Positions 15,282 through 54,888 of a DNA stretch of 64,000 nucleotides are shown piece after piece. The translations under genes were made by a program, and so were the position numbers. The stretch's first letter is position 1. Each line of letters begins with the position of its first letter. The stretch is from Defluviimonas aquaemixtae (lineage in GTDB: Bacteria > Pseudomonadota > Alphaproteobacteria > Rhodobacterales > Rhodobacteraceae): positions 248,001 to 312,000 of the forward strand of contig NZ_OMOQ01000003.1 in assembly GCF_900302475.1 (NCBI RefSeq), written 5' to 3'. The notes under the pieces were generated by a model, which saw nothing but the letters and a program-made list of their open reading frames with translations, was not told the origin of the DNA and did no database searches.

Positions 15282-15288
15282 CATAAGG

Positions 15289-18320: not shown

Positions 18321-18328
18321 TCTGCATC

Positions 18329-18347: not shown

Positions 18348-18356
18348 TTCATAGCG

Positions 18357-19656: not shown

Positions 19657-19709
19657 TCGTATCGCCTCTTCGCGCTACCCCAGTCGAAAATCGGCCGGCC
19701 GACCTTAGC

Positions 19710-38211: not shown

Positions 38212-38362
38212 GGATGATCGTGTCCTCGCTCATACATAACACGAGGTCGCCAACAGGGGTAAGTTGGGCTCCCGCCGGACCTGCGGCAGCGCGGCATGGT
38301 AGGGCCTGATACCGGCATCGGGTCGGCGATGAGGTGGCATGCGGCGGAGCGGAGGAACCGTC

Positions 38363-39544: not shown

Positions 39545-40441
39545 TCAGTTCTTCACTGTCGGCATGAAAACGTGGGATTTGCCGAACATGCGGGCCGAGA
39601 CAAGGTCGGGCGAAGCGATCTCGATCCCGGCTCCGTGCAGCTTTTCCAGCACTGCCCAGTTCAGCCGGGACCGGCTCTCGTTCAGCCGGTCCGGCGTCGC
39701 GGGGCGTCCGTGTATCTGATAAACGACGGAGTAGTCCTCGATCTCTTGGACCCAGACCGAGGCGCCGGTCACGCCGGCGGCGGTGGCGGCCTGTTCCAGC
39801 AGGGGCTTCACGACGGAAGGATCGACGTCGAAGCCGAGCGACACCGAGGTCGAGATGACCGCGGTCTCGGCCGGCATCTGCTTCACATGGTGCATCAGGA
39901 CATGCGTGGAGGGGAAGGAGATGCGTTCGCCGAGTTCCGTCCTCATCTCGACGCGCAGAAGCTCGATCCGCTCGATCCGCCCGAAGACGCCGTCGATCGT
40001 CAGGTACTGGCCTTCCTTCAGGTTCCAGATCGGCCGCAGGAGCATCCCCGCGAGCGCGTTTCCGGTGATGCTGGTCGAGGACAGGGCGATGAGCGCGCTG
40101 AGCGATATGCCGAAGAGAGTGAGGACCGAGGAGCGGTTCTCGGGCGTGAAGGGCAGGAGGATGATCAGGAGGAACAGCACGGCGAGGACGACGGCGCTCA
40201 TCATCGCGTAGCGCGTGACCAGCCGGTCACGATGCGTTCCAAACAGCCGGTGGAGCGTGCGGTTGGCGTAGTAGATGGCCGCCACCGCCGCGACCAGCAG
40301 CGCGACGGTCCACAGAAGATCGTTCAGCAGGTGGCCGAGCGTGTAGTTCTCGTCATGGATGTTGAAGACCTGCGCACATGCCGGGCCGGGGACGAAAAGG
40401 GCCGCCGGCGCAAGTCGCGCGGGGTTGGGGAGAAATCTCAT
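39545..40441 (-). CDS. MscS-family mechanosensitive channel, last gene of the CIS operon
   Basis: 298 residues. Signal-like N-terminus, then three transmembrane segments (about 42-62, 80-98, 108-130) and the MscS pore/beta-domain region 'ALSSTSITGNALAGMLLR...EGQYLTIDGVFGRIERIELLRVEMRTE', followed by a C-terminal alpha/beta cage. It is a normal size for the small MscS group. It starts in the stop of the preceding membrane-protein gene (4-bp overlap), so it belongs to the injection-system operon. It may respond to membrane tension or simply support the envelope, and its link to the CIS is by operon only. Confidence 0.85.
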   Translation of the reverse strand: MRFLPNPARLAPAALFVPGPACAQVFNIHDENYTLGHLLNDLLWTVALLVAAVAAIYYANRTLHRLFGTHRDRLVTRYAMMSAVVLAVLFLLIILLPFTPENRSSVLTLFGISLSALIALSSTSITGNALAGMLLRPIWNLKEGQYLTIDGVFGRIERIELLRVEMRTELGERISFPSTHVLMHHVKQMPAETAVISTSVSLGFDVDPSVVKPLLEQAATAAGVTGASVWVQEIEDYSVVYQIHGRPATPDRLNESRSRLNWAVLEKLHGAGIEIASPDLVSARMFGKSHVFMPTVKN

Positions 40442-41064
40442 AGTCCGGTCGCCTTCTTGATCGCGGGAAGGGAAAACACTGCAAAACCGAAGGCCCTGAA
40501 GCAGGTCACGGCGAGGATGACGATCGCGCCGACAATGTCGGTGATGCTGACGAAGATCGCGGGGAAGCCGTACAGGACGCTGACCATGGCGGTGAACGCG
40601 AGCGACATCGCTACGATGACGACCAGCCCGAGATTTTCGAGGAACCGCTGATGCGCCGCGATCAGCGCCAGCGCGAAGCCGATCTTGCAGAGCATGATCG
40701 TCCCGAGAAAACCCGCCGCCGATTTGACCGGGAACAAGCCGAACGCGAAGAAGTAGGCCGGCGGGAAGAAGAGCGACGAGATCATCACAAAGAGAAGCGC
40801 GATGGCCGCGAGGAGCGCAATCGCCGCCAGGACGAGGATGACGCAGGCAAGGACGAAGGTCACCATCCCCTGCGTCCGGCCCGCGACGGCGTTCGTGACG
40901 ACCATCGGCGCGGCGATCAGGAGGACGGTCATCACGACGAGGAGGTCGAAGACGGCGAGCGCCCCGATCCCGTTGCCGACGCAGGCCCCGGCGAGTTCGA
41001 GCACGACGGCCAGGACGATCAGTGCGACCGCCGCGACGAAGGGAACCTTGCGCGTCTCAGCCAT
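40438..41064 (-). CDS. Polytopic membrane protein of the CIS operon
   Basis: 208 residues from the ATG at 41064. Very hydrophobic, with about six to seven predicted helices (near residues 8-28, 33-52, 64-88, 92-112, 116-140, 147-170, 175-200) and short loops. No Sec signal and no recognised family. Its start overlaps the Ig-like/TM gene by 8 bp and its stop overlaps the MscS gene by 4 bp. It is probably part of a membrane platform made with its neighbours. Confidence 0.65.
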   Translation of the reverse strand: MAETRKVPFVAAVALIVLAVVLELAGACVGNGIGALAVFDLLVVMTVLLIAAPMVVTNAVAGRTQGMVTFVLACVILVLAAIALLAAIALLFVMISSLFFPPAYFFAFGLFPVKSAAGFLGTIMLCKIGFALALIAAHQRFLENLGLVVIVAMSLAFTAMVSVLYGFPAIFVSITDIVGAIVILAVTCFRAFGFAVFSLPAIKKATGL

Positions 41065-41839
41065 CGCGCAGCAACCCTTCGAGGCCCTCGGGCAGGACGC
41101 AGAGACAGGTCGGGCCTTTGTAGCCGTCGCGCTCCTTCCCCTCGCTGAACAGCATCCTGTAGAGCGCATAGGAGCTGAGGCAAGCCTTCTGGCCCGCTTC
41201 GTCCTTTGGAACCGGGTCGCATTCGGGATTGGTCCCGATGCCACCGAGGGCGGCGCCGGAGAGGGTGCTGAGCGCATAGACGGCGACGAGGACGATCAGC
41301 GCCTTCCAGACGATGCGCCTGTTGACGATGACGGCGCCGGACGGTCCGCCGGGCTGCGTCCCGAGAAGCCAGCGCGCGCCGAAGCCGAAGAGCGCCCGGA
41401 AGGGCCAGGCAATGGCCTGCCACGGGAAGCGGAAGCCGCGGCCCGGCCGCTTGCCGGGATCGGCCCCGGCACCGCCGCCCGCCTCGGTGGGCGCAGGCGC
41501 GCGGGGCACGACATCGAGCGTCACCGAGGGGCTGGCGGCCGGGTGCTCGTCGCCGGCGGCATGGGTGATCAGCCGGAGCTTGCGGGCCCCGGCGGAGATG
41601 CCGGCGGGCACCTCGGCCGCGACGACGATGCGCGCCGTGGCGCGGGGGCCGAGCTGGCGCAGGGGGCCGTCCTCTACCGTGAACCAGCCGGGCGCGACGT
41701 CGCCTTCGCCGGTTACCGAGAGCCGCACCTCGACGGGCTCGGTCAGGGTGTTGGTGATGGTGAACAAGAGCCGCGCCTTCCCCGACCCGTCGCAGGAAAG
41801 CGCGCGTACGAGCGGCGTGATCTCTACCTTGTGGCCCAT
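41057..41839 (-). CDS. Ig-like N-terminal domain plus single TM and Cys-containing tail, CIS operon
   Basis: 260 residues. Residues 1-112 form a beta-sandwich-like domain ('LFTITNTLTEPVEVRLSV', 'LGPRATARIVVAAEVPAG'), homologous to that of the next upstream gene's product. A Pro/Gly linker (113-135), an amphipathic region, and one transmembrane helix (about 177-200) follow. The last 60 residues carry Cys207, Cys220, Cys245 and Cys247, suggesting disulfides on the periplasmic side. There is no signal peptide, so the Ig-like domain should be cytoplasmic, where it could touch the baseplate. This topology is an inference. Confidence 0.65.
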   Translation of the reverse strand: MGHKVEITPLVRALSCDGSGKARLLFTITNTLTEPVEVRLSVTGEGDVAPGWFTVEDGPLRQLGPRATARIVVAAEVPAGISAGARKLRLITHAAGDEHPAASPSVTLDVVPRAPAPTEAGGGAGADPGKRPGRGFRFPWQAIAWPFRALFGFGARWLLGTQPGGPSGAVIVNRRIVWKALIVLVAVYALSTLSGAALGGIGTNPECDPVPKDEAGQKACLSSYALYRMLFSEGKERDGYKGPTCLCVLPEGLEGLLRDG

Positions 41840-41866
41840 GGGAGGATCGCGCCGGGCGTCATCGGA

Positions 41867-42598
41867 TCAGTTCGCCGTTTCACGGAGTTTCTGCCAGAAG
41901 AGGAACGCGAGGACCGCCGTCATGATGCCGGTGAAGTAATCCGCGACCGGCAGCTTGATGAAGAAGACCGCCGCGAGAAGGAGCGGGGCCCAGAAGCTGA
42001 GAAAGCAGTGCAGCTTCGTGAAATGGCGGCGGATGGCGATCCCGACCATGATGGCGCAGAACAGGCTCGATCCGATCCAGAGCACCGCTGCCTGACCGCC
42101 GGCTTTCACGTTGTCGCGCCCGAGTATTTCGTCGAGGACCGTCCCCAGCACGGCGCCAACGACGAAGGCGAGGACGAATGTGACCGCCCCGCCGATCAGC
42201 GTCACCAGCCAGCTCCTGCGCGGCTTGGGCGGCTGGACGACCGGCGCTTCGGGCGGGGGCGTGACCGTGACCGGAATGGCCCCGCTTTCGTCGAAGCGTT
42301 CGCCCGGTTCCTTGAGGTCGAAGACCAGAAGGCTGAACGCGAAGCTGCCCGGCGGCGCGCTTTTCGGCGCGTCGAGATGCACGTCGACGGCGAGGTCCTC
42401 GCCGGGGCGAAGGCGTTTGCTGTTGCCGATATCAACCGAGAGCCACGCCTCCGGCAGATCGCCCTCGGTAACGACGCGGACGCCGACCTCGAGGCCCTCG
42501 TCGGCGACGCACCGGGCGGTGTAGGAGGACGTGACCCGCGTCCCCGCCTCGCAGGTCATGGGTGTCAGAGTGTCGGAAAAGCTTACGATGCTGCTCAA
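41867..42598 (-). CDS. Ig-like N-terminal domain plus four TM helices, CIS operon
   Basis: 243 residues from the TTG at 42598 (GGCGGG upstream); an internal ATG at 42559 would cut into the domain. Residues 1-113 match the Ig-like domain of the downstream gene's product (shared C-x2-G near the start, 'EGDxPxxW', 'LxPGxDLAVDV'-like strands). A Pro-rich linker 'PPPEAPVVQPPKP' leads to four hydrophobic helices (about 130-155, 169-189, 198-216, 219-236). The pair looks like a duplicated adaptor: one soluble domain carried on two kinds of membrane anchor. It lies 4 bp after the gpI-like baseplate gene. Confidence 0.65.
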   Translation of the reverse strand: MSSIVSFSDTLTPMTCEAGTRVTSSYTARCVADEGLEVGVRVVTEGDLPEAWLSVDIGNSKRLRPGEDLAVDVHLDAPKSAPPGSFAFSLLVFDLKEPGERFDESGAIPVTVTPPPEAPVVQPPKPRRSWLVTLIGGAVTFVLAFVVGAVLGTVLDEILGRDNVKAGGQAAVLWIGSSLFCAIMVGIAIRRHFTKLHCFLSFWAPLLLAAVFFIKLPVADYFTGIMTAVLAFLFWQKLRETAN

Positions 42599-42602
42599 CT
42601 GT

Positions 42603-43232
42603 CTATCCCGCCTTCTTGCTCTCGTCGCCCCTGCGCTTGCGTGGCGCCCTGGCCTCCTTGTCCGGTTCCTCCACAGTTGGCGCCATCAGGCCGCTGAAAA
42701 CAAGCTCGTGCGTCACATAGGCCGGTTTTTCCTCGGCGATGATGCGCTCGATGAGCCTCGCGAAGCCCAGCGCGGCCCCCGGGGCGAGGACGCGGATGTG
42801 GAAGGGGACGGGCTGTCCGCGAGCATCGGCGACATGTTCGTCGACACTGAACCCCTCGATGCCCGTGGCCTGTTCGAGGAACTTCCGCAACCCCTCGGAG
42901 GTGCCGCGCAGGCGCGACAGCTCGGGCGCGGCGCGGATGAGCTTCCGCAGCTGCGCCGTGCCCGGCGCGAAGCGGGGGCCCCGGCCGGCTGGCGCGCCGG
43001 AATATTTGTTGCGGTCGAAGAACCGTTCGAGATCGACGCAGCGCGCCAGCAGATAGACGAACCGGTCCTCGGCGCGATCCACCGAGAGGTTGTCGGGCAG
43101 CCGCTCGACCGCCCGTTCGACGGGCGAGAGCAGCGCCTCCATCGCGGCGATCAGCGCGTCGAGCGGCGACCGCCCGGTCAGCGTGCGCCGGTAAATCTCG
43201 GGCAGAAGATCCTCGATATCAGAGCGTTTCAT
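42603..43232 (-). CDS. Baseplate/tail protein, P2 gpI-like
   Basis: 209 residues from the ATG at 43232, overlapping the baseplate-J gene by 14 bp. N-terminus 'DIEDLLPEIYRRTL' and 'YLLARCVDLERFFDRNKYSG' plus 'RLRGTSEGLRKFLEQATGI' match the phage tail protein I/TIGR02242 family found in contractile injection systems. It likely forms the wedge of the baseplate together with gpJ. The C-terminal 25 residues are Lys/Arg-rich. Confidence 0.78.
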   Translation of the reverse strand: MKRSDIEDLLPEIYRRTLTGRSPLDALIAAMEALLSPVERAVERLPDNLSVDRAEDRFVYLLARCVDLERFFDRNKYSGAPAGRGPRFAPGTAQLRKLIRAAPELSRLRGTSEGLRKFLEQATGIEGFSVDEHVADARGQPVPFHIRVLAPGAALGFARLIERIIAEEKPAYVTHELVFSGLMAPTVEEPDKEARAPRKRRGDESKKAG

Positions 43233-45798
43233 CGACCTGCGACACCCTGATCTCGTGGCGGCCCGAGCACAGGACCCAGTTCGCGGGCAGCTTGACCTCG
43301 TTCTCGAACTCGGTCTCGGAACAGCACTGATAGCTGATGCCGAGATCGGTCGAGCGGAAGACGCCGCTCGGCCCGGCCGCGAGCACGAAGCCCTCGGTGG
43401 CGGCGATCGCGTCGACGGGGCTGAGGCGGCTGACATCGCGCAGCGGCAGGCCGCAGCTGACATCGGGCGTGCGCCAGGCGATCTCGGCCTCGTCGGGGTT
43501 CAGGCACAAGACGCCCCGCCTGAGCGAGCCGGCATAAATCGTGTGCCCGTCATGCGCGAGTGCACGGCAGCCGCCCGCCGACCAGCCCTCGCCGAAATGG
43601 GTCCAGTCGTCCTGGTCGATGCCCTTTCCCTCGAGCTGGGCGCGGTAGCAGCCGTTGCCCTCGTCCTTGCCGACCGCCGAGACGCCCGCCCAGAGATAGC
43701 GGTGCGTGGCGGTCTCCTGGATCATCAGGACGCGCACCAGTTCGCCCTTCAGGCCGACATGGCGGTAGCTGCCGGCCTCACCCGCCTCGGCCGACAGGTA
43801 GACGCCCTGTTCGGCGCTGCCGGCGACCGCCACGATCGTGCGGCCTTGGAGGTCGCGCGAGACGGCGACCGAGGTCGCTCCCATCTCGGGGTCGTCGGCG
43901 TCGACGAGGACCTGGCGCGGCGCGGCGCCGGGTTGCAGCAGGACCTCGAAGAGACCGGAGGGCGAGGCGAGGAAAAGCGACGGCACCCGGTCGCGGAAGA
44001 TCCAGGCGACGCTGGAGACCTCGAACTCGAACAGGCTGACGAGCTCGAAGCTTTCGCCGCAGTCGCGCGAGACGTGGAGCCGCCACTGGTCGTCCTCTTT
44101 CGTCACCGCCGAGACGAGCCCGGCCCGGGCGGGATCGTCGCCCGCCTCGGGCGCGTAGGCGGCGACGTGCATCACCGTCTGGCCGTCGAAGCGCGAGAGC
44201 GCTTCCCAGCTGTCGCCGTTGTTGCCGGAGCGGTAGAATTCCGACCCGCTCGCGGTGTACCAGGTGTCGGCCTGGTAGGGGTCGCGGGCGAGCGTCTTGA
44301 CCTCGGCATGGGGCGCATGGTCGACGACGAGGCGGATATTGGCGACACCCGCGACGCCGGGCAGGTCGCCGATCGCGCGCAGGACGTCCCAGGCAAGAAG
44401 CGGCCGGCCGAAGCCCCAGCCCGGCTTGCCCGGGCCGCGATCGAGCGGGTTGACGAGGTTCTGCAGCCGTTCGCTGATGCGGGCCTCGGCGGCGGCGCTG
44501 TCCTGGCCGGGATAGACGGTCACGTTCGCCCGGGCGAAGACGCTCTTGTAGCGCGCCCAGTTGATCAGGCAGGCGGTTCCGAGCGCGCGCCGCACGTCGA
44601 GGACACCCTGCACCTGTTCGAGGACCTGCGCCTGCTGCGCCTCGCGCAGCGACTGCACCGTCACAAGCCCGGTCGTGTCGTGCGGTTGGGGCACCAGCGA
44701 GACGTTGACGGCACCGCGCGCGCCATGGGCCCAGAGCGAGGCGTTCGCGATGGCGCGCGCCCGGTTGACGCCCGCCGCCGCGCGGCAGGCAAGTGTCTCG
44801 AAGTCGCGCGCGGTGATTGCGCGTTCGAGGGAGTGCAACTCCATAGGGCCGCGCGCCAGCGCGTTCTCGAGTGCCTCGGTCGGTCGGCCCGCCGTGGCGG
44901 CTTCAGGATTGGTCACCGAAACGCCGTCGAGCGGGGAGACGAGAACCGACAGCTTTCCCGCGGGAATGCCGCCACCGCCCTCGCCTTCGTGACGGTACCA
45001 GACGCGGATTTCCTGGCCGCGCGCAGGCACGTTGCCGAGAACAATCGGGCGGTCGCTCACCCGCCCCGCGCCCTCGCCGATCCTGAGCGCGGGCGCGAAG
45101 GCGATCTCTCCGGTGTAGCGGTTGACGGTATAGACGTTCCGGCCACGGGTCTGCTCAGAGAACCGGCTGACCTCCTGCCAAACTGAATAGGCCCTGCCCG
45201 CGTGTTCGACGGTCGTGTCGGCGGCGGTAAGCTCGGACGCCTCGGCCTCGACGGCCACGATCATGTTTTGCCCGGGCAGGTTGTCAGCGATGAGCGGGCC
45301 GTGGCGCACGGTAACGGACTGGCCCGGCTGGCCGTCGCCGCGGCCCGCGAGCTCGCCCGCGACCGACACGAAATGCGCCGCCGGCACAAGGACCTCGGTC
45401 TCGCCCGCAGGCAGCGTCGCCGGCACCAGTGTCTCGAAGACGGGAGGCCGACCGCCATCGCCGCCGCGCGGCGTCGTGACCCGCAGGCCGGCGGGCAGCT
45501 CCAGATCGGCGCCGCGCGGCGCGGCTAGGTTCAACTTCAGCACCGCCTGCGCGGCCGAGGGTGGGAAGGGGCGGACGTTCAGAAGCTCCAGGAAGGCGAC
45601 ATAGGCCTTCTCGGGCAACCGGTTCATCCGGTAGATCATCATCTCGGTCAGATGCGCGAAGGCTTCGACGAGGACGACGCCCGGATCGCTCGTAGAGAGG
45701 TCGGTCCAGCCGTCGCTATGCTCTCGCACGACCTGCAGCGCCTCGTCGACGAGTTCGTCAAAGGTCCTGTCGTCCACCTCCGGCATCGGCAGTACCAT
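43219..45798 (-). CDS. Baseplate J-like protein fused to a C-terminal beta-propeller
   Basis: 859 residues from the ATG at 45798 (GGAGGGGGGG upstream). Residues about 1-500 are a baseplate assembly protein of the gpJ/TIGR02243 type ('STSDPGVVLVEAFAHLTEMMIYRMNRLPEKAYVAFLELL' region near the start, 'ELHSLERAITARDFETLA' in the middle). From about residue 520 to the end come repeated blades with 'TWYTASGSEFYRSGNNGDSWE', 'SRDCGESFELV', 'VFRSTDLGISY' and similar Asp-box-like turns, that is, a BNR/YCF48-type beta-propeller of about six to seven blades. The fusion could place a binding head at the baseplate, for envelope anchoring or target recognition. Confidence 0.82.
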   Translation of the reverse strand: MVLPMPEVDDRTFDELVDEALQVVREHSDGWTDLSTSDPGVVLVEAFAHLTEMMIYRMNRLPEKAYVAFLELLNVRPFPPSAAQAVLKLNLAAPRGADLELPAGLRVTTPRGGDGGRPPVFETLVPATLPAGETEVLVPAAHFVSVAGELAGRGDGQPGQSVTVRHGPLIADNLPGQNMIVAVEAEASELTAADTTVEHAGRAYSVWQEVSRFSEQTRGRNVYTVNRYTGEIAFAPALRIGEGAGRVSDRPIVLGNVPARGQEIRVWYRHEGEGGGGIPAGKLSVLVSPLDGVSVTNPEAATAGRPTEALENALARGPMELHSLERAITARDFETLACRAAAGVNRARAIANASLWAHGARGAVNVSLVPQPHDTTGLVTVQSLREAQQAQVLEQVQGVLDVRRALGTACLINWARYKSVFARANVTVYPGQDSAAAEARISERLQNLVNPLDRGPGKPGWGFGRPLLAWDVLRAIGDLPGVAGVANIRLVVDHAPHAEVKTLARDPYQADTWYTASGSEFYRSGNNGDSWEALSRFDGQTVMHVAAYAPEAGDDPARAGLVSAVTKEDDQWRLHVSRDCGESFELVSLFEFEVSSVAWIFRDRVPSLFLASPSGLFEVLLQPGAAPRQVLVDADDPEMGATSVAVSRDLQGRTIVAVAGSAEQGVYLSAEAGEAGSYRHVGLKGELVRVLMIQETATHRYLWAGVSAVGKDEGNGCYRAQLEGKGIDQDDWTHFGEGWSAGGCRALAHDGHTIYAGSLRRGVLCLNPDEAEIAWRTPDVSCGLPLRDVSRLSPVDAIAATEGFVLAAGPSGVFRSTDLGISYQCCSETEFENEVKLPANWVLCSGRHEIRVSQVDETL

Positions 45799-45800
45799 GG

Positions 45801-46235
45801 TCAACCCCCCCCTCCGGACAGATCAAAGCCGAACGACGCGCTATCCTCGATGCCGGTCCGGCGGACACGGTAGTGCAGCTCGGTCTGCATGACATGCTCC
45901 GCGTGCGGGTCGCGGTGCGCGTCGATATGGATCACCTGGACGCGCGGCTCCCACGTCGCGACGGCCTGCTCGACATAGTGCATGGCGAGCCCGTGCGTCG
46001 TCTCGTCGTTGGGCGCGAAAACCAGCCGGTGCAGGTCGCAGCCGTAGTCGGGGCGGCGCACGCGCTCGCCCGGTGTCGTGGACAGGAGCATGAGGATCGA
46101 CTGGCGGATGGCGAGCATGCCGGTCGCGAGCGCCAGGCGCCCGTCGCCCGCCACGACGAGGCCCGCCTCGGGGCCCCGGTCGAGATCGGGATGGACGAAA
46201 CGCAGCGCGGCGTCTGGAGCCGAAACGGGCGCCAT
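45801..46235 (-). CDS. gp25-like baseplate wedge protein
   Basis: 144 residues from the ATG at 46235. GPW/gp25 signature 'AIRQSILMLLSTTPGERVRRPDYGCDLHRLVF' region (about residues 43-75) is complete. In T4, P2 and eCIS the gp25 protein joins the sheath initiator to the baseplate wedge. It is 2 bp ahead of the J-like gene and 4 bp behind the PAAR-like gene, a conserved order in injection systems. Confidence 0.88.
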   Translation of the reverse strand: MAPVSAPDAALRFVHPDLDRGPEAGLVVAGDGRLALATGMLAIRQSILMLLSTTPGERVRRPDYGCDLHRLVFAPNDETTHGLAMHYVEQAVATWEPRVQVIHIDAHRDPHAEHVMQTELHYRVRRTGIEDSASFGFDLSGGGG

Positions 46236-46239
46236 CCGG

Positions 46240-46584
46240 TTACTCCCCCGCCCTGACGAGCGCCTGACCGGCGTCGCGCACCTTGTACTTGACCATGCCG
46301 GGCGGCGTGCCATCGGTCAGGCCAGACGTGTCCTCGAGACAGACGGGCGCCCCCGCGATCGTGACGAAGTCGCTCGCGCCGGTCGCCATCGGCAGGGTCG
46401 AGGTGCAGGGCTTCAGCGTCGGCCCGACATTCGGGCAGCCCGCAATCGGCCGCCCGGCTGGGTCGGGGCGGCGCAGGACCGGGCTGCCCTCGATCGTTAC
46501 GAAGCCGCGCGAGGCCTTCATCGGCGCGACCCCCACGACGTGGTCGCAGGTGACGACCGCGCTTTCTGTAAGCAGGAGTTTCAT
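46240..46584 (-). CDS. PAAR-like spike tip protein
   Basis: 114 residues, four Cys (13, 50, 60, 82) and His15 that could bind a metal ion as in PAAR cones. Repeating short beta strands with Gly/Pro turns ('FVTIEGSPVL', 'FVTIAGAPVC') form two similar halves. It overlaps the spike gene by 4 bp, the usual neighbour. It probably sharpens the tip of the VgrG-like trimer. The assignment rests on size, repeats and position rather than an exact PAAR motif. Confidence 0.75.
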   Translation of the reverse strand: MKLLLTESAVVTCDHVVGVAPMKASRGFVTIEGSPVLRRPDPAGRPIAGCPNVGPTLKPCTSTLPMATGASDFVTIAGAPVCLEDTSGLTDGTPPGMVKYKVRDAGQALVRAGE

Positions 46585-48122
46585 AGCTTCTCGAAATCCA
46601 CCTTGGCGGCGCCGATTCGGACCTCCCGGCCCGGCGCGCGGATCTGCAGGTCGGTCTCGGCGTGCAGGACCATGCCGCCGGAGGTCATCTCGACATAGCT
46701 GCCGTTCGCCGCCTCGACCCGCGTTTCGTCGCGCGCCAGCGACAGCGTCGCGCCGCCCTTCGCGCGCGCGACGATCCGGTCCTTGGCGTCGTCAAGGACG
46801 ACCTCGTGGCCACCGCCCGACCGCATCAGGAGCTTGCAGCGCCGGCCGCCCGACACGCCGGTATCGTCGGGTGCCTCGCTGCCGAAGACGCCGCCGAGCA
46901 CGACGCCCTGCGCCGGATCGCCGTTGACGAGCGCCACCAGAACCGTGTCGCCAAAATCCGGCAGCGCGATCACGCCCTTGTCACGGCCCGCGGCGGGCAG
47001 GAGCACCTGAAGCCAGTCCGTTTCGATATCGGCGAAGACGGGAAGCGCGACGCGCACGCGGCCGAGCCCTGACGGATCGGCGACGTCGACGACGCGGGCG
47101 GGCGTGATCTCGCCCGCCGGAGCCTGCGGCGCGGCGTCGGGCAGGCGCGTCGAGACCTCCGTGAGGAAGCCGCGCTCGCCGTCGACGGTGTGCAGGACGG
47201 AGCTGAGCACGAAGGAATGGTCGCCCGCCATCCCCGCGCCGACGAGCCGGACGGCCACGCCGGGGCCGAGACGGGCATCGCCGGTGACGGTGCCTTCGAG
47301 CGTCAGCCGGTCGGCCTCGGCGCGGTCCATCGCCGCCTGCGCCTCGGCCCCCGCCTCGCGCCGGCTTCGCCCGGTGCGCGACGCAAGGACGCGGCCGGCG
47401 CCGCCCCTACCGCCGAGAAGGCCCGGCCTCTGCGTCGGCGCGGGCGCGGCGGCGCTGTGGTGGGCGATGGTCGTCGGGTCCCATTGTCGCGCCTCCATCC
47501 CGCCCGGCACCGCGAGCAGGTTGTCCTCGAACCGGAACGCAAGGAGATTGTCCGCCGGGTCGAGCGGAGTGGCCCGGCCGCGCCGCTGTGCGCGCGTCAC
47601 GACCAGCCGGTTGCCGTCCAGGAAGAACCACAGGCCCGCCCGCGCGGCGATGTCGCGCAGGAAGTCGAGGTCGCTCTGCCGCGTCTGGGCCGTCCGGGGC
47701 AGGACCGGACCGTCGTCCCTGACATCGGTGGCAAGACCGTGCCGGCCGGCGATATCCGCGATGATCTCGCCGGCCGTCATGTCGGAGAACATGGTCATGG
47801 TCTGTGCGCCGCGCAGCCGGTGGAGCGCGTCATGGGCGCGCAGACGCATCACTGGGGCCCCGGCGAGCGGCTTTTCGACCGCGAGCGCCGTTACCGTCCC
47901 GTCGAAGATTGCGCACCGTCCCTGTCCGACAGTGACCGTCAGCGGGGCGTCGGCCAGGATGCGCGGGCGGTCCGGCTCGAGCCGCAGGGTGATCTCGCAG
48001 AGCGCCGGCGCGGAGAGCTCGCGGCGAACCCGCATGTCCGATACCAGCCCCGACAGATCCGACCGCGCCAGGCCCGATCCGCAGCGGACCGCAAGGGCGG
48101 GTATGTCGCGAATGATGGTCAT
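46581..48122 (-). CDS. VgrG/gp27-gp5-like central spike protein
   Basis: 513 residues from the ATG at 48122, overlapping the LysM gene by 4 bp. N-terminal gp27/phage late control D-like region (about 1-200, 'DMTAGEIIADIAGRHGL', 'SDLDFLRDIAARAGLWFF'), an Ala/Arg-rich insert, an OB-fold (about 345-430, 'DPSGLGRVRVALPVF', 'GDTVLVALVNGDPAQGVVLGGVFG') and a short beta-helix C-terminus. It forms the trimeric needle hub above the PAAR-like tip. No C-terminal effector extension is present. Confidence 0.87.
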   Translation of the reverse strand: MTIIRDIPALAVRCGSGLARSDLSGLVSDMRVRRELSAPALCEITLRLEPDRPRILADAPLTVTVGQGRCAIFDGTVTALAVEKPLAGAPVMRLRAHDALHRLRGAQTMTMFSDMTAGEIIADIAGRHGLATDVRDDGPVLPRTAQTRQSDLDFLRDIAARAGLWFFLDGNRLVVTRAQRRGRATPLDPADNLLAFRFEDNLLAVPGGMEARQWDPTTIAHHSAAAPAPTQRPGLLGGRGGAGRVLASRTGRSRREAGAEAQAAMDRAEADRLTLEGTVTGDARLGPGVAVRLVGAGMAGDHSFVLSSVLHTVDGERGFLTEVSTRLPDAAPQAPAGEITPARVVDVADPSGLGRVRVALPVFADIETDWLQVLLPAAGRDKGVIALPDFGDTVLVALVNGDPAQGVVLGGVFGSEAPDDTGVSGGRRCKLLMRSGGGHEVVLDDAKDRIVARAKGGATLSLARDETRVEAANGSYVEMTSGGMVLHAETDLQIRAPGREVRIGAAKVDFEKL

Positions 48123-48880
48123 GACTCGGCCCGAAGTTCCTTGCGTACGGGGATCTTCAGCGCGATCCCGGGCGCGAGCATGTCCGGACTGCGGATGTCG
48201 TTCGCGTCCGCGATGACCCGCCACAGCCCCGCATCCCCGTAGTAACGCTCCGCCAGCAGGTCGAGCCGGTCGGCCGACCGCGCCGCATCGTCGCCCGCCG
48301 GCGGCGCGGTTGTGTGGATCTTGGGCGCCGCCCCGCCCGCCTCAGCGCCCTTCGCCTCGGCGATCCTGAGCGGCTGGCGCCGCGCCGCCGCGCCGGGCCG
48401 GGCCTGGGCGTCTTCTTCGCCCGGCACCACGAGCAGCCGCAGCCGCAGCCAGGACCGGCGCGGCACGCCCGAGGCATCGAACGCCTCGAGCCGCTCGGCG
48501 ACGCTGCGGACCACGGCCCGGACGTTCCATGTCTTGCCCCAGACGAAGCGGATATAGGGCGGCCGGCGCACACCACCCGGCGGCGCGTCGGTGTTTTCCG
48601 AAAGCTCCCAAATCGGCCGCGTATGGTCGCGGACATCACCCGACACGACGGTGGAGCCGAGCCTCAGCGAGACGTCGAAGACAAGGTCGAGGTCAAGTTC
48701 CGAATAGCCGCCACCGGTGAAAAGCGCCGAGCCGCGCCGCGTCCCCCGGTCGCCGACCGAGCCGGTCGAGAAGGTTTCGAGGTCGATCCCGGCGAGGCGG
48801 CGAAAAACGAGGCTTTCGGGGTTTAGCATGCAGCTGAGCCGCGTGTTCGTCCGTTCGACCAGGAATGCCACGCGCTCCAT
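48119..48880 (-). CDS. LysM-containing tube-baseplate adaptor (CIS tube protein, Afp7/gp53-like)
   Basis: 253 residues. N-terminal CIS tube-adaptor domain ('MLNPESLVFRR', 'DLDLVFDVSLR', 'VWGKTW') through about 150, a Pro/Ala linker, and a C-terminal LysM ('DRLDLLAERYYGDAGLWRVIADANDI', ~210-250). The same architecture occurs in Afp7/Pvc7. It connects the tube to the spike hub. It starts 1 bp after the Pro/Arg-rich gene. Confidence 0.87.
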   Translation of the reverse strand: MERVAFLVERTNTRLSCMLNPESLVFRRLAGIDLETFSTGSVGDRGTRRGSALFTGGGYSELDLDLVFDVSLRLGSTVVSGDVRDHTRPIWELSENTDAPPGGVRRPPYIRFVWGKTWNVRAVVRSVAERLEAFDASGVPRRSWLRLRLLVVPGEEDAQARPGAAARRQPLRIAEAKGAEAGGAAPKIHTTAPPAGDDAARSADRLDLLAERYYGDAGLWRVIADANDIRSPDMLAPGIALKIPVRKELRAES

Positions 48881-48881
48881 C

Positions 48882-49685
48882 TCAGCTTCTCTGCTCCCTG
48901 ATCAGCGCGGCGAGGCGGTCGCGCTGGTCCGCGACGGCCTCGGGCGTCGCCCTCCGGACGATACCGGCGGGAAGGTCGGGCCAGCGGTCGGAGCCCCAGT
49001 CGGCGCCGGGCCGGTCGGGCGCGGGGCCGGTCGGGCGAAGGGGCGTCGACGCGGCGGAGCGGCGATCCGACGGCGGCAGCCCCGGCGGGGCAGCGGGCGC
49101 GCCGTCTTCGGAAGGTTCGGCCTGGCTTGGCGCGGGGCGCGGCGCGGGCGGCAGGTCGGACCATGCGAGGGTCGGGCGCGGAAACTGCGCGGGAGGCGGG
49201 GCGGCGGGACGTTCGGCGACGGTTGGCGGCGGGCGGTCCCTCGCCTCGCGGGACGGCAGCAGGAGCCGGCCGGCGCCGGTTTGCTGTCTGGCCCGACCTT
49301 CCTCGCGCGCGGACCCGCGCGCGTCGGAGGCCGGTGACGGTCGCCTGCGTGGCGCATCGGTGTCGCGGGCCGGAATCTCCGCCGCCGCATCGTGTTTCCG
49401 GCCGCTCGTAAGGCCCGGCGCACGCTCCTCCTGCCGCCCTGTGGCCAGGGCGGCCGTCTCGGAACCCTCGGCGTCCGCGTCGTCCAGGAGTTGCGGCGCG
49501 TGTTTCCTGACCAGCTGCAGCCAGTGCTCCGGCGGCCTGCCCCCGTGTCGTCCGGCGGGCAGGTCCGCCGCAGCGGTCCCGAGACGGTCGGCGAGCCGCG
49601 AAAGCGCGCCGGCCGCCGACCTCAGAAGCCGCGCAAAGGGGCCCGCGACGGAGCCGGGACCTGCGCTGCTGCGCCGGTCACGCAC
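48882..49685 (-). CDS. Pro/Arg/Ala-rich low-complexity protein of the CIS operon
   Basis: 267 residues, with start overlapping the tube gene by 8 bp. The short N-terminal helix (about 10-45, 'GPFARLLRSAAGALSRLADRLGT') and the C-terminal helix (about 235-267) flank a disordered Pro/Arg/Ala/Glu-rich centre. eCIS clusters often have a poorly conserved, low-complexity protein in this position. It could act as a small tape measure, a chaperone or a flexible linker. The very high GC means the frame is supported mainly by its tight overlaps. Confidence 0.55.
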   Translation of the reverse strand: MRDRRSSAGPGSVAGPFARLLRSAAGALSRLADRLGTAAADLPAGRHGGRPPEHWLQLVRKHAPQLLDDADAEGSETAALATGRQEERAPGLTSGRKHDAAAEIPARDTDAPRRRPSPASDARGSAREEGRARQQTGAGRLLLPSREARDRPPPTVAERPAAPPPAQFPRPTLAWSDLPPAPRPAPSQAEPSEDGAPAAPPGLPPSDRRSAASTPLRPTGPAPDRPGADWGSDRWPDLPAGIVRRATPEAVADQRDRLAALIREQRS

Positions 49686-50103
49686 GCTCGATCCCCTCGC
49701 AGACGAGGGTCAGCGTTTCGATGGCCGAGGCGTTGCTGAGCGCGTCGAACTCGGCGCCGCGCCACGCGGTCGGCCAAGCATCGGTCAGGTTCCAGCGGGC
49801 CTGTTCCTGACCGCCGGGCCGCGTCAGGATGATCGAGATGTGCCGCCGTTCGACGCTGCCGGAGGCGGCAGTCTGCATCCAGTCCCACAGGTCGCGCGAT
49901 TCCGACAGGCCCCATTTCAGCGTGATGTTGCCGTATTTCGCGCGACCGGCGAGCTTGCGCACAGCGGGCCCACCGCCGCCCTCGCGGTAGTCGATCGCCT
50001 CGACCTCGACACTGAGACCTGTCACTTCGGTGAAGTAGCCGACCGGCCCCTCCCCCAGATCGAGAATGAAGTTGTACGCGCGATAGATCTCACGGTCCGG
50101 CAT
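49678..50103 (-). CDS. CIS inner tube protein (T4 gp19/Hcp-like)
   Basis: 141 residues, normal for gp19-like tube proteins. 'YNFILDLGEGPVGYFTEVTGLSVEVEAIDYREGG' (about 10-43) and 'KYGNITLKWG' are family signatures (phage tail protein, TIGR02241). Hexamer stacks of it make the rigid tube fired by the sheath. It is the only tube gene of the cluster, while classical eCIS have two or three. Confidence 0.92.
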   Translation of the reverse strand: MPDREIYRAYNFILDLGEGPVGYFTEVTGLSVEVEAIDYREGGGGPAVRKLAGRAKYGNITLKWGLSESRDLWDWMQTAASGSVERRHISIILTRPGGQEQARWNLTDAWPTAWRGAEFDALSNASAIETLTLVCEGIERA

Positions 50104-50112
50104 GGTGCGCCC

Positions 50113-51258
50113 CTATCCCTGGTCCTCATCCGGGCGGATCATGCCCAGACGAAAGACGATGAATTCCGCCGGCTTCACGGGCGCGATGCCGATCTCGGTG
50201 ATGAGCCGTCCGGCGTCGATCGATTCAGGTGTGTTGGTCTCGTCGTCGCAGCGCACGAAGAACGCCTGTTCGGGCGTCTCGCCCAGAAGCGCGCCCTGCC
50301 GCCACAGGAGCGTGAGGAAGGCGCGCACGTTCCGCTCGACGCTTTTCCAGAGGGTCATGTCGTTCGGCTCGAAGACCGTCCAGCGCGTGCCCTCCTCGAT
50401 CGATTCCTTGATCATGTTGACCAGCCGGCGGACGTTGATGTAGCGCCACTCGCTGGCCTCATCGGCGAGCGTCCGGGCGCCCCAGACGCGGATGCCGGAG
50501 GTCGGGAAGAAGCGGATAACGTTCACGCCCGCCTTGTTCAGTTCGCCCTGCTCGGCCCGCGACACGAGCTTCTTGAGGCCGAGCGCACCGCGCACCGTCT
50601 CGTTCGCGGGCGGCTTGTGGACGCCGCGCTTGGCGTCCGTTCGGGCGTAGATCCCGGCGATGTGGCCCGAGGGCGCGGCGTCAAGCGTCCGGGACGGGTC
50701 GAACGGATCGCGCACGATCAAGTGCGGAAAGTAGACCGCGCCGTAGCCATCTTCCGACGACCGCGGGCGGAACCCCGAACCGCCGCCCGAGGCGCTGGCG
50801 ACCTTCTTCAGCGCCTCCAGATCCTCGGCATCGGCCGGAAAATCGAGGATGGCGACCCGGTCACCGAGCTTTTCGCAATGGATCAGGACCGCCTCATAGG
50901 CCGCCGCATCGCCCTGCCCCGGGGCGCAGACGATCGCGATCTCGTCGAAGGCCTCGAGCGCCTCGAGCCCGCCGGCCAGATCGGCTTCGGTGCCAGTGTT
51001 CACGATGAAGCAGCGGCCGCCCCCGTTGAGGAAGAAGCCCTGGACCGCCACGGCGAGGTCGTTCGACGTGCTGTCGGCCTCGGCATAGTCGGCGACGAAC
51101 TGGGACCAGTTGTGGCAGGGCCGCGGCTTGCCGACATGCGCCCCCGCCCGGGGCGCGGCGCCGAGAAAGGCCGCCGTGCTCGTCCCCACCATTCCGATCG
51201 GCTTCGCGCCGGTCGACACTTCTTCGACATAGACGCCGGGAGTCTGATAATTGGACAT
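50113..51258 (-). CDS. Contractile sheath protein
   Basis: 381 residues from the ATG at 51258; GTG 51264 is less likely. Opening 'YQTPGVYVEEV' and the C-terminal 'PAEFIVFRLG' are the hallmarks of phage and eCIS sheath proteins. The mid part 'GYGAVYFPHLIVRDP' and 'VNVIRFFPTSGIRVWGARTL' is well conserved. Only one sheath gene is present and it is among the shorter ones, so the sheath may be a simple homopolymer. It begins 2 bp after the cap gene. Confidence 0.95.
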   Translation of the reverse strand: MSNYQTPGVYVEEVSTGAKPIGMVGTSTAAFLGAAPRAGAHVGKPRPCHNWSQFVADYAEADSTSNDLAVAVQGFFLNGGGRCFIVNTGTEADLAGGLEALEAFDEIAIVCAPGQGDAAAYEAVLIHCEKLGDRVAILDFPADAEDLEALKKVASASGGGSGFRPRSSEDGYGAVYFPHLIVRDPFDPSRTLDAAPSGHIAGIYARTDAKRGVHKPPANETVRGALGLKKLVSRAEQGELNKAGVNVIRFFPTSGIRVWGARTLADEASEWRYINVRRLVNMIKESIEEGTRWTVFEPNDMTLWKSVERNVRAFLTLLWRQGALLGETPEQAFFVRCDDETNTPESIDAGRLITEIGIAPVKPAEFIVFRLGMIRPDEDQG

Positions 51259-51260
51259 GA

Positions 51261-51935
51261 TCACGCTTCTTTCGGGCTGAATTCGACTTTGACGGGCGAT
51301 TCGGAGAGGTCGATCTGAAGGGTCTGGCTGCGGCCCCGCGCCTCGATCAGGAGCGTGCTCCGACCGGGCCGCACGGCGATGCCCTCGAACGCGAAGAGGC
51401 CGCGATCATCGGTGCGGGTCGAACGGCGAAGCTCGGGCAGCGTCACCTTGGCGCGGGCGAGCCCGGCCGGGCCCGGGCCGATCACCTGCCCGGCGAGCCG
51501 GCCGAAGGGCGCGAGCTCGATCTCGGTCGGCTGGGTGACCGGCACGCCGGCGCGCGCAGGCAGCTGCGGCTCGATCGGGACGTTCAGGAACAGGCCGGCG
51601 CGGGGCGCGACGCCGAAGGCCCGCCAGACCGCAACGTCGATCGCCGCGAACTCGGCGTCGATCCCGGCATCGGCCAGCGCGGCCTCGGTCACCTGCCCCA
51701 GCGCCCGGTGCCCGGCCGCGGAATCGGGAGCGGCCGTCGTCACGAGATAGCGCGCCGTCAGCGCCGCGCGGGCGGTCGCCGCGTGCGACCTCGGATGCGT
51801 CGGCAGAAGGTCCATCAGATGCAGGAAGATGGTCGCCTTCCCGGCCTCGGCGACCGGCGGGCCGATCACGATATCCGCCTCGACACCGACCTGCCTCAGC
51901 CAGCCCTCAAGCCGTTCGGTCGCTGCGTCGATCAT
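51261..51935 (-). CDS. Tube terminator/cap protein (DUF4255, Pvc16-like) with carboxypeptidase-regulatory-like domain
   Basis: 224 residues. The DUF4255 N-terminal region spans about 1-145 ('IDAATERLEGWL', 'IFLHLMDLLPTHPR', 'LTARYLVTTAAP') and is the cap that stops tube and sheath polymerisation in PVC/Afp. Residues about 150-224 form a small beta-sandwich ('LAGQVIGPGPAGLARAKVTL', 'TRTDDRGLFAFEGI') of the CarboxypepD_reg type. It is the first gene of the 14-gene operon and divergent from the 52.1-kb gene. Confidence 0.88.
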   Translation of the reverse strand: MIDAATERLEGWLRQVGVEADIVIGPPVAEAGKATIFLHLMDLLPTHPRSHAATARAALTARYLVTTAAPDSAAGHRALGQVTEAALADAGIDAEFAAIDVAVWRAFGVAPRAGLFLNVPIEPQLPARAGVPVTQPTEIELAPFGRLAGQVIGPGPAGLARAKVTLPELRRSTRTDDRGLFAFEGIAVRPGRSTLLIEARGRSQTLQIDLSESPVKVEFSPKEA

Positions 51936-51987: not shown

Positions 51988-52101
51988 ACTATTTGGCCGA
52001 TCAAGAATATTGTTCTACGTTCGATTCCGGAAAGGCGAGTCGGTGGGAAAGATTACCCACGGGATCATTGAATTCGATTGCTTTTATTCGGGAGGTTGGA
52101 A

Positions 52102-52803
52102 ATGAAAGTGCACTTTGTCCTGAACAAGGTCACCAAGACTTTCGCGGTCGTGCTGAGGGACCTGGCGGCGCACCGCAAGGCCGGGAAGGCCAACGAGAAG
52201 CCTGCGATCCACGACCGGGTGGCAGAGGCCCTGAACAGCGCGGTCTGCATGCACGGCGACGCCGACATGGTGTTCGAGCAGAGAAGGGGCGACGACAACA
52301 ACTGGACCAAGCAGGATCTGGCGAAGGCCGTGATGCCCGAGGTCTACAAGGGCCTGATGAAGATCGCCCAATACCTCGACACGCTGAAGAACAACCTCGT
52401 GGGGCTCAACATCACCACGGACAAGGAGCTTGAAGAAGCTATCCGCAAGTTCATGGATAACGACAAGGATGCGAGCGCGGCGAAGGCATTTCTCAAGAAA
52501 ATCTACCTGCAGGACAACGGCAAGCTCCGCTATCCCACGATGGCGGAGATCAATGCGCGCACCGACACGTTCCTGCCGCGCCTGCGCGACTCCCTTGAGG
52601 CCGCACGTCGCCGGGCCAAGGCCGAGGCGGAGGAGCGAGCGAAACAGGCGGCGTCCAGTTCGTCGGAACAGGCGCCGCAGGCGGTCTACGGAAGCGGCCC
52701 GCCGGCGATCGACGCGGATTATGCCATCCCGCCGGCGCCGGCCCAGTTGTACGGCCAGGTGCCCCAGCTTGACTACGACAGCGTCAACGCGCCGCTGAAC
52801 TGA
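52102..52803 (+). CDS. Unrecognised protein divergent from the CIS operon
   Basis: 233 residues from the ATG at 52102, preceded by GGGAGG at a good distance. Soluble. Residues 1-165 are mostly helical and charged ('YKGLMKIAQYLDTLKNNLVGL', 'MDNDKDASAAKAFLKKIYL'), followed by an Arg/Ala/Glu-rich helix (about 165-195). The final 45 residues are Pro/Tyr/Gln-rich and probably disordered. I do not recognise the family. Its position, sharing a regulatory region with the CIS, makes it a candidate cargo, cap-binding factor or regulator. This is a hypothesis from location only. Confidence 0.7.
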   Translation: MKVHFVLNKVTKTFAVVLRDLAAHRKAGKANEKPAIHDRVAEALNSAVCMHGDADMVFEQRRGDDNNWTKQDLAKAVMPEVYKGLMKIAQYLDTLKNNLVGLNITTDKELEEAIRKFMDNDKDASAAKAFLKKIYLQDNGKLRYPTMAEINARTDTFLPRLRDSLEAARRRAKAEAEERAKQAASSSSEQAPQAVYGSGPPAIDADYAIPPAPAQLYGQVPQLDYDSVNAPLN

Positions 52804-53078
52804 TGCAATCTGACGCGCGTGCGTTGGGCCAGGGACATTAGTTGGTTTTTTAAGCTTAAGGGGAAGCCGCCGCTAAATAGACTATGAGCTGTAGAGTAGG
52901 GTACTTCGTGATCAGGGCTGTTTCCGGAGCTGGGTGATTGATATCCAACTTCGGATTGCGGGTGCCATGTTCTTGCCGGAGATTTCCGCTTCCAGATGCC
53001 ACTGCATCGTCGGGGCCAGAAACAAGACACAGTGTGGCCGAACTTCTTTGGCCTGACCGATCGGACAGGGGGCAAGCC

Positions 53079-54716: not shown

Positions 54717-54888
54717 TCGACCCTCTCCACACCTCGCACCGCGAAATAGCCAAACGCAGACTTCTGCCAATCTGCGACCGAATTTGCGGTTCCATCGTGG
54801 TCTGCGCATACGACCCCTCCGCGCAAGCCACGGAAAACGCGTCACTATCCGAGGTGAACTTCGCACCGTCTCGATCGGGCGGAGTGGG

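What the first reader, a model, noticed from the sequence alone, without database searches (positions are those of the whole stretch)
39545..51935. Compact contractile injection system whose operon continues into a membrane-protein module
Fourteen minus-strand genes run from the cap (51935) to an MscS channel (39545). Junctions are overlaps of 4-14 bp or gaps of 1-27 bp (for example 48119/48122, 46581/46584, 40438/40441). The first ten encode recognisable or CIS-typical parts. The last four are membrane proteins: two Ig-like/TM proteins, a polytopic protein and MscS. Operon structure implies that the membrane proteins are made together with the CIS. Known CIS are released (eCIS), T6SS-type membrane-docked, or membrane-anchored as in some cyanobacteria. 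This gene set has no T6SS TssJLM/TssK/TssBC signature. I infer an inner-membrane-docked, non-T6SS CIS.
Basis: partly seen in the sequence, partly recalled or inferred. Interest (0 to 1): 0.85.

Follow-up and report, generated by a model that had tools for sequence, protein, structure and literature searches.

The report
Contractile injector with conserved membrane module
A compact phage-tail-like injection machine comes with its own set of inner-membrane proteins, and the same pairing recurs in distant bacterial phyla, which suggests that this uncharacterised kind of injector is recruited to, and fired at, the membrane of the cell that makes it.

Summary
In detail: 14 minus-strand genes (51935 to 39545), junctions -14 to +27 bp. 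The linkage is not accidental. I collected 84 loci by homology to baseplate gene gpJ alone (80 genome contigs, 4 plasmids; nine phyla by title). The Ig-like membrane protein family (mem1/mem2) is encoded in 77 of 84, the polytopic protein (mem3) in 72 of 84, and neither in 21 control stretches of other CIS or sheath loci. mem3 occurs in 1 of 398 genomes of the window's phylum: its own. The family lacks the Afp15-type ATPase (0 of 84 loci; 8 of 21 controls). Among solved structures its gpJ is closest to that of the Streptomyces CIS, whose firing needs the membrane protein CisA. mem3 matches no Pfam family, but its model has the YiiP/ZnT membrane fold without the usual metal ligands. The Ig domain lacks a signal peptide and is predicted cytosolic; the outer part varies. 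Best reading: a membrane-recruited, CisA-like CIS module, a new variant of a known kind. MscS has no match in 84 relatives: a local addition. Docking is inferred, not shown. Unexpected: caspase/CHAT genes flank 14 of 84 relatives, none in the window.

The parts
51261..51935 (-). cap protein (Afp16 position), C-terminal CarboxypepD_reg-like domain
   Evidence: Pfam PF13620 E 6.7e-6, below curated cut-off; tblastn match in 59 of 84 loci
50113..51258 (-). contractile sheath
   Evidence: PF17482 and PF04984; 71 of 84 loci
49678..50103 (-). inner tube (gp19 family)
   Evidence: PF06841 E 9.5e-38; 71 of 84 loci
48882..49685 (-). g4: Pro-rich, probably disordered protein of variable length in relatives, with recurrent HWLxLV and WPxLP motifs; role unknown (plug, length control or cargo carrier)
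   Evidence: WPxLP near the end of 52 of 66 g4 proteins (window counted); lengths 174-605 aa
48119..48880 (-). Cis7-like tube initiator, with a weak C-terminal Phage_tail_X (LysM-like) match
   Evidence: PF19266 E 9.6e-11; PF05489 E 0.087
46581..48122 (-). VgrG/Afp8-like spike (GPD plus OB domain)
   Evidence: PF05954 and PF04717
46240..46584 (-). PAAR-position protein
   Evidence: no Pfam or NCBIfam match; tblastn match in 83 of 84 loci
45801..46235 (-). gp25-like baseplate protein (Afp9)
   Evidence: PF04965 E 3.6e-23
43219..45798 (-). gpJ/Cis11 baseplate protein, 859 aa, with a C-terminal propeller-like region
   Evidence: TIGR02243; family profile matches S. coelicolor CIS baseplate entry 9gtp E 4.8e-102 and BNR/xyloglucanase-type proteins over about 501-597
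42603..43232 (-). gpI/Cis12 baseplate protein
   Evidence: PF09684 E 8.2e-7
41867..42598 (-). mem1: N-terminal Ig/NEW3-like domain, then 3-4 hydrophobic segments
   Evidence: PF10633 E 0.0015; 3 segments at threshold 1.6, 4 at 1.3; IgTM model E 1.3e-41, own row included in the model; multi-TM Ig proteins also in Thiocapsa L044 and Chloroflexi L061, L067
41057..41839 (-). mem2: N-terminal Ig-like domain, one TM helix, short Cys-containing C-terminus (bitopic)
   Evidence: AlphaFold model; one segment 180-198; IgTM model E 1e-43, own row included
40438..41064 (-). mem3: six-helix membrane protein of an unnamed family with a CDF/ZnT-like fold
39545..40441 (-). MscS-like channel, 4-bp overlap with mem3; addition of this locus
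   Evidence: solved MscS structures E about 1e-5; no tblastn match in 84 relatives

Best explanation
This is a compact contractile injection system without the Afp15-type ATPase. It assembles in the cytoplasm and is recruited to the inner membrane of the producing cell by a dedicated, co-inherited membrane module, instead of being released with tail fibres or held by a T6SS TssJLM complex. The Ig proteins (here mem2, bitopic, with mem1 as a multi-pass variant) sit in the gene position of the tail fibre and of Streptomyces CisA. Their Ig domain faces the cytoplasm and binds the baseplate, most likely gpJ/Cis11 or gpI/Cis12. Their outer part, which varies between lineages, reads the wall or envelope state. 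mem3, a CDF-fold protein without the usual metal site, forms the membrane platform or trigger at the docking site. Docking followed by contraction drives the tube outwards through the cell's own membrane, killing or permeabilising the producer or ejecting cargo under stress. Shown here: gene content, tight gene spacing, co-conservation across phyla, absence from the control CIS loci tested, predicted folds of the Ig domain and mem3, similarity of gpJ to that of the Streptomyces CIS. Inferred: cytosolic orientation (charge bias), docking, direction of firing, outcome.
For: In 84 loci picked by gpJ homology only, mem3 is in 72 and IgTM in 77, and all 72 mem3 loci also have IgTM; 0 of 21 control stretches have either. 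Of 12 genomes whose locus lacked mem3, 9 have it elsewhere in the assembly or beyond the stretch. mem3 was found in 1 of 398 genomes of the window's phylum, the one that also has full-length gpJ. IgTM is the gene right after gpI in 67 of 79 loci, window counted, median gap -1 bp. gpJ and mem3 distances correlate over 42 less redundant loci (r 0.85, against 0.70 for gpJ and sheath). Clades that cross phyla keep the same module type: Nitrococcus and Halospina with two Desulfuromonadales have the k32 protein and same-strand mem3. No hydrophobic segment begins before residue 60 in the 80 IgTM proteins that have one; K+R is higher before than after the first in 65 of 80. PASTA is matched in 14 of 29 aligned IgTM proteins, a PD40 propeller in 1, META in 1. 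The family gpJ profile's best solved match is the S. coelicolor CIS baseplate protein (9gtp), from the system whose firing needs CisA (PMC12237407; abstract, passages, Discussion).
Against: No interaction, localisation or expression data exist here. The positive-inside rule fails or ties in 15 of 80 IgTM proteins (9 reversed, 6 equal). In 30 of 68 loci with mem3 downstream of gpI it lies on the opposite strand, so it is linked but not always in the operon. Three of 84 genomes (L052, L072, L079, all MAGs) showed no mem3 even genome-wide. The Ig match by Pfam is weak (5 of 29). The CDF match of mem3 is weak by Foldseek (best E 0.002) and strong only by VIA-align. The Streptomyces locus tested has no relative of IgTM or mem3, so function by analogy is not proof. 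The models that count IgTM and mem3 were built from rows of the same loci. Relatedness between loci inflates the distance correlations, and no neutral gene was used as control. The 21 control stretches include three of one locus and are mostly alphaproteobacterial.
Confidence: 0.6

Rival explanations
1. The CIS is released like an eCIS. The membrane proteins serve release (a holin-like or lysis role), or protect or signal in the producer, and never touch the baseplate.
For: All recognised structural parts are phage-tail-like. mem3 is often on the opposite strand, 30 of 68, as expected for an accessory or separately controlled gene. Caspase and CHAT genes flank 14 of 84 relatives and could mediate lysis.
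Against: No tail-fibre gene was recognised in the window; the fibre position after gpI holds the Ig protein (position as described in PMC12237407). The gpJ is closest, among solved structures, to that of the S. coelicolor CIS, which is reported as cytoplasmic. The mem3 model is a six-helix CDF-type fold, unlike small holins (recalled).
Confidence: 0.2
2. A contact-dependent, T6SS-like machine: permanently anchored at the inner membrane and fired into neighbours, as proposed for haloarchaeal CIS.
For: Haloarchaeal CIS are membrane-bound and have a putative anchor with six TM helices and a cytoplasmic domain of about 150 residues (PMC11566945, passages); mem1 has a comparable layout (Ig domain plus 3-4 TM). 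The architecture occurs in diderm and monoderm phyla.
Against: No recognisable trans-envelope component. The AAA ATPase present in 8 of 21 control stretches is absent, so recycling would be hard. No effector-immunity pair was recognised; none was searched for systematically.
Confidence: 0.15
3. Accidental operon fusion: envelope-stress genes happen to lie downstream of a horizontally acquired CIS.
For: The operon looks foreign (GC 0.66-0.78 for the ten CIS genes, GC3 0.84-0.89 for all 14, against GC3 0.74-0.80 in six of eight neighbours measured), and mscS is indeed a local addition.
Against: The Ig/TM and mem3 families go with this CIS type in nine phyla and are absent from the controls.
Confidence: 0.05

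Closest known systems
Streptomyces coelicolor cytoplasmic CIS (type IId) with CisA
   Same: gpJ core homologous to its baseplate protein (9gtp, E 4.8e-102); a membrane protein encoded right after the baseplate genes, with a cytosolic N-terminus and extracytoplasmic C-terminus (predicted here, tested for CisA in PMC12237407); no recognised tail fibre
   Different: The window family has no AAA ATPase (present in Streptomyces locus L145), usually one gp19-type tube gene, a propeller-like end on gpJ, an Ig domain where CisA has a largely unstructured N-terminus, and a CDF-fold protein. IgTM and mem3 models find nothing in L145.
Haloarchaeal 'T6SS' CIS with putative anchor Hbor_38620
   Same: a CIS gene set with a conserved, CIS-linked membrane protein; membrane-bound in cryo-ET (PMC11566945, passages)
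   Different: One protein with six TM helices and a cytoplasmic domain, upstream of the core genes; that cluster has Cis13 and is described as cis1-16 without cis6 and cis14. Its sequence could not be compared here (accession tried was not held).
Thylakoid-anchored CIS of Anabaena (tCIS)
   Same: membrane anchoring instead of release
   Different: Anchored through structural parts (Cis12 extension, TM segment of Cis13; PMC8894136, passages), not by a separate membrane module
eCIS (AFP, PVC and the eCIStem collection)
   Same: cap, sheath, tube, Cis7, spike, PAAR position, gp25, gpJ, gpI
   Different: no Afp15-type ATPase; no Afp13 fibre or Afp14 tape measure recognised; a membrane module instead
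Cation diffusion facilitators (YiiP, ZnT), for mem3
   Different: 12% identity, no Pfam or PDB-sequence match, only the membrane domain, TM5 without Asp/His and one conserved Asp in TM2

Membership tests
T6SS (subtypes i-iii) | TssB/TssC sheath, TssK and TssJLM in the cluster | tested here: not met
   Sheath is PF04984/PF17482; no T6SS family among the 14 genes. The one TssK match of the genome is on another contig. TssJLM and TssBC were not searched genome-wide.
eCIS (AFP/PVC type) | Afp15-type AAA ATPase in the cluster | tested here: not met
   ATPase model built from 4 control loci: no match in the window or in 84 relatives; 8 of 21 control stretches match, 4 of them the model's own rows
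eCIS (AFP/PVC type) | core sheath, tube, spike, gp25, gpJ, gpI, cap | tested here: met
   the cap by position and homologues only, without a Pvc16 Pfam match
eCIS (AFP/PVC type) | released particle with tail fibres | not testable with these tools
   No fibre gene recognised; release needs experiment
Cytoplasmic CIS, type IId (Streptomyces) | gpJ/Cis11 of the same lineage | tested here: inconclusive
   The S. coelicolor protein is the best solved relative, but in the quick tree 46 family rows are split from the four other rows (Streptomyces L145, Deinococcus L147, Roseomonas L146, L025) with support 99. Four outside rows and a midpoint root do not settle which type is the sister.
Cytoplasmic CIS, type IId (Streptomyces) | CisA membrane protein | tested here: not met
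   IgTM and Ig-domain models find nothing in Streptomyces locus L145 (that L145 is type IId is my assignment); the analogue shares position and predicted topology, not detectable sequence
Membrane-docked CIS (mode of action) | baseplate bound to the inner membrane before firing | not testable with these tools
   needs cryo-ET or imaging
CDF/ZnT transporter (mem3) | six-TM CDF fold | tested here: met
CDF/ZnT transporter (mem3) | transport-site ligands, two in TM2 and two in TM5 (positions recalled) | tested here: not met
   TM2 has one conserved Asp (D40, 27 of 28); of the conserved polar residues TM5 has Ser/Thr only
MscS channel (mscS gene) | MscS TM3 and beta-domain homology | tested here: met
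   residues 37-215 match several solved MscS structures, E about 1e-5; Pfam match below its cut-off

The most novel reading that the evidence does not exclude
A phylum-spanning class of contractile machine is fired by the producer's own membrane. A cytosolic Ig receptor with an interchangeable outer sensor (PASTA, propeller, META or other) recruits an ATPase-less CIS, and a CDF-fold protein without the metal site acts as docking platform or membrane-state trigger. In several lineages the machine is coupled to caspase-like and CHAT proteases, making a bacterial cell-death apparatus with sensor, puncturing device and protease executioner side by side.
Probability: 0.35. Interest if true: 0.92.

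Novelty: new variant of a known kind. Interest (0 to 1): 0.76.

Why it matters
How a contractile tail that is neither T6SS nor released finds a membrane is an open question raised by CisA, tCIS and the haloarchaeal systems. This module gives a defined, co-inherited set (Ig-TM receptor, CDF-fold protein and, in most relatives, a small one-TM protein) in genera with cultured members such as Nitrosomonas, Methylomonas, Myxococcus, Thiocapsa and Micromonospora (culturability recalled). The question can therefore be tested by deletion and imaging. It also gives a sequence marker (mem3) for finding such CIS, a candidate use of the CDF fold outside metal transport, and a link to caspase-like proteins. 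I saw no description of the module in the listings and passages of my searches, which cover only open-licence PMC papers; the dbeCIS paper (Chen et al. 2019) was not held.

Tried and rejected
Rejected: (a) mem1 as an orphan. A search of 5.8 billion proteins found only itself (3842 candidates) and a pattern scan of genome contigs found nothing; this was a sensitivity limit, since profile models built from relatives find the family in 77 of 84 loci. (b) Relatives via the sheath: 16 of 289 genomes of the window's class (one of them its own) have a sheath match at E 1e-20, but the stretches from the 15 others gave no mem1-mem3 match by tblastn. (c) mscS as part of the module: 0 of 84 (several contigs are short). 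(d) Attachment-site repeats: 17 imperfect direct-repeat families in 36000-56500, none convincing as att sites. (e) Terminators between gpI and mem1: none, the gap being 4 bp; 13 terminator-like sites on both strands against 6.5 expected, all inside the extent of the genes. (f) mem3 as a named family: no Pfam match; two NCBIfam matches near E 0.02, one member each, judged chance; no PDB sequence match. (g) Plasmid collection: nothing for mem2, 2 records for mem3. (h) Naming the host: no 16S rRNA gene found in the assembly. Plasmid matches of chromosomal parts point to Rhodobacterales: Leisingera best for 7000-20000 (77% over 43%), Paracoccus best for the KdsA protein (76%). The counts (mem3 73 and IgTM 74 of 85 loci, window included) come from gene calling and clustering; I used the profile counts instead. 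The gpJ tree is the quick one; the careful search did not finish.
Full report
WHAT IS THERE. The window lies in a genome of 4.2 Mb (G000:C3:248001-312000). Fourteen minus-strand genes run from the cap (51935) to an MscS-like channel (39545) without a gap above 27 bp. Ten encode a compact contractile injection system: cap, sheath, tube, a Pro-rich protein (g4), Cis7, spike, PAAR-position protein, gp25, gpJ and gpI. Four follow: mem1 (Ig-like domain plus 3-4 hydrophobic segments), mem2 (Ig-like domain, one TM helix, short Cys-containing tail), mem3 (six helices) and mscS. The gpI-mem1 gap is 4 bp, mem2 overlaps mem3 by 8 bp and mem3 overlaps mscS by 4 bp, so translational coupling and one transcript are likely. 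No transcript was measured.

IS THE LINKAGE REAL. Sequence searches with mem1 alone found no relatives, so I went through the baseplate gene. gpJ has full-length relatives of similar length (307 proteins, 120 listed, 38-57% identity). An alignment of 30 of the 120 listed, the window's own included, was used to scan GTDB genome contigs: 166 stretches encode relatives and the best 80 were kept. With four plasmid loci this makes 84. The membrane genes played no part in choosing them. By title they cover Pseudomonadota, Thermodesulfobacteriota, Myxococcota, Gemmatimonadota, Chloroflexota, Acidobacteriota, Planctomycetota, Actinomycetota and Deinococcota (grouping by me); 35 of 84 are Actinomycetota, mostly Micromonospora, so the counts are not independent. 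Profile models find mem3 in 72 of 84 loci and IgTM, the joint family of mem1 and mem2, in 77 of 84; all 72 mem3 loci also have IgTM. These models were built from rows of the same loci, so the counts measure spread, not independent discovery; plain tblastn with the window's own mem3 matched 70 of 84. Of the 12 genomes without mem3 in the locus, 9 have it elsewhere in the assembly or beyond the stretch, one copy with an in-frame stop; three MAGs (L052, L072, L079) have none.

CONTROLS. The same models hit 0 of 21 control stretches: three around the genome's own second CIS locus, 15 from other genomes of its class with a sheath, and plasmid CIS loci of Streptomyces, Roseomonas and Deinococcus taeanensis; a gpJ model hits 10 of these 21. 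In 398 genomes of the window's phylum drawn evenly, mem3 was found once, in the window's own genome, which is also the only one with full-length gpJ; one other genome has partial, distant gpJ matches. The module is therefore specific to this CIS lineage as far as tested.

ARCHITECTURE. In 67 of 79 loci (window counted) the gene right after gpI is IgTM on the same strand, median gap -1 bp. This is the position of the tail fibre in eCIS and of CisA in Streptomyces (PMC12237407, passages). Most relatives have next a small protein with an N-terminal TM segment: in 57 of 71 loci with a same-strand gene after the last IgTM it belongs to one of three clusters, which hhalign joins with probabilities 96.9-98.5. 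mem3 is on the same strand in 38 and the opposite strand in 30 of 68 loci that have it downstream of gpI. The window and its nearest relative, Thiocapsa sp. KS1 (L044), lack the small protein and have two Ig proteins; two Chloroflexi loci (L061, L067) have two Ig proteins and the small one.

WHICH CIS. No ATPase of the Afp15 type is found in the window or in 84 relatives, whereas 8 of 21 control stretches have one, 4 of these having built the model. The family gpJ profile's best solved relative is the S. coelicolor CIS baseplate protein (9gtp, E 4.8e-102, best stretch 137-493); its C-terminal part resembles BNR and xyloglucanase-type proteins. In a quick, midpoint-rooted tree of 50 gpJ proteins the 46 family rows are split from four others (Streptomyces, Roseomonas, D. 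taeanensis, L025) with support 99, and the window pairs with Thiocapsa (support 100), not with the Rhodovulum or Paracoccus plasmids. GC3 is 0.84-0.89 in the 14 genes, against 0.74-0.80 in six of eight neighbours measured (0.86 in the divergent 241-aa frame, 0.55 in APH). With a serine recombinase, a tRNA-Gln and an integrase fragment nearby, this fits horizontal acquisition. gpJ and mem3 distances correlate strongly (r 0.85 over 42 loci, permutation p 0.001), as do gpJ and Ig (0.81) and gpJ and sheath (0.70); relatedness alone would give some of this.

HOW IT PROBABLY WORKS. The closest experimental precedent is CisA, a bitopic protein needed for contraction in situ and for stress-induced cell death, predicted to bind Cis11 (PMC12237407; abstract, passages and Discussion). 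Haloarchaeal CIS have a putative six-TM anchor (PMC11566945, passages) and Anabaena tCIS a TM segment in Cis13 (PMC8894136, passages). Roseiflexus CIS of type IId are described as intracellular and unanchored, without close cisA homologues (PMC12998442, outline and passages). I propose that IgTM recruits the baseplate, mem3 forms the docking site, and firing goes outwards through the producer's own membrane. Steps shown: gene linkage, specificity, predicted folds. Steps inferred: orientation, binding, firing, outcome.

A LEAD TOWARDS CELL DEATH. Models of two protein clusters, which Pfam names CHAT-TPR (two members scanned) and caspase, Peptidase_C14 (one scanned), hit 14 of 84 relatives, next to the cap or beyond mem3, and 0 of 21 controls, which are mostly alphaproteobacterial. 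In all 14, a Pfam CHAT or Peptidase_C14 place of the same genome has coordinates inside or at the edge of the fetched stretch (compared by hand; contig names are hidden). Twelve of these genomes hold 0-5 CHAT and 0-3 Peptidase_C14 genes each in 3.2-8.8 Mb, the other two 9 and 42 CHAT, 4 and 10 C14, so adjacency by chance should be rare. But the 14 were chosen because they have the genes, they include close kin (three Nitrosomonas, two Methylomonas), and background rates of the other 70 were not measured. The window itself has none.

VERDICT. Observation confirmed. Interpretation partly supported: the linkage is real, widespread and specific as far as tested, MscS is not part of it, and membrane docking is the best reading but unproven. 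A new variant of a known kind.

Noticed in passing
L045-L049, L053-L055, L065, L070, L074, L076, L095, L122: CHAT-TPR and caspase (Peptidase_C14) type genes flank the compact CIS in 14 of 84 relatives, in L049 directly downstream of mem3 on the same strand; 0 of 21 control stretches. Suggests a cell-death or protease link.
   Followed up: partly
G000:C2 about 638500-656000 (L003, L004): The same genome has a second, different CIS locus with an AAA ATPase, a Pvc16-type cap and two tube genes.
   Followed up: partly
G000:C1:2235608-2236879 and C1:2217693-2221158: The genome also has a T6SS TssK gene, and two of its three Peptidase_C14 genes lie about 14-18 kb from it.
   Followed up: no
48882-49685: g4 between tube and Cis7 is Pro-rich, of very variable length in relatives (174-605 aa), with recurrent HWLxLV, WPxLP and an EQRGxxWN-like end: a possible length-control, plug or cargo-carrier protein.
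   Followed up: partly
52078-52803 (+): A 241-aa open frame divergent from the cap gene, with only weak Pfam and NCBIfam matches that I judge chance; a possible regulator or partner.
   Followed up: no
52938-54963 and 38339-38950: A serine recombinase next to tRNA-Gln and a phage-integrase fragment lie on either side of the operon; no convincing direct repeats were found between 36000 and 56500.
   Followed up: partly
L108:2359-2967 and L040:14046-14963: Multi-TM protein cluster in 30 of 85 loci (window counted, not a member), upstream of the cap in Micromonospora, with an HExxH motif in the printed members; no Pfam match in the two scanned: a candidate membrane metallopeptidase.
   Followed up: no
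37249-38211: APH-family phosphotransferase gene of much lower GC (0.52, GC3 0.55) than its surroundings.
   Followed up: no
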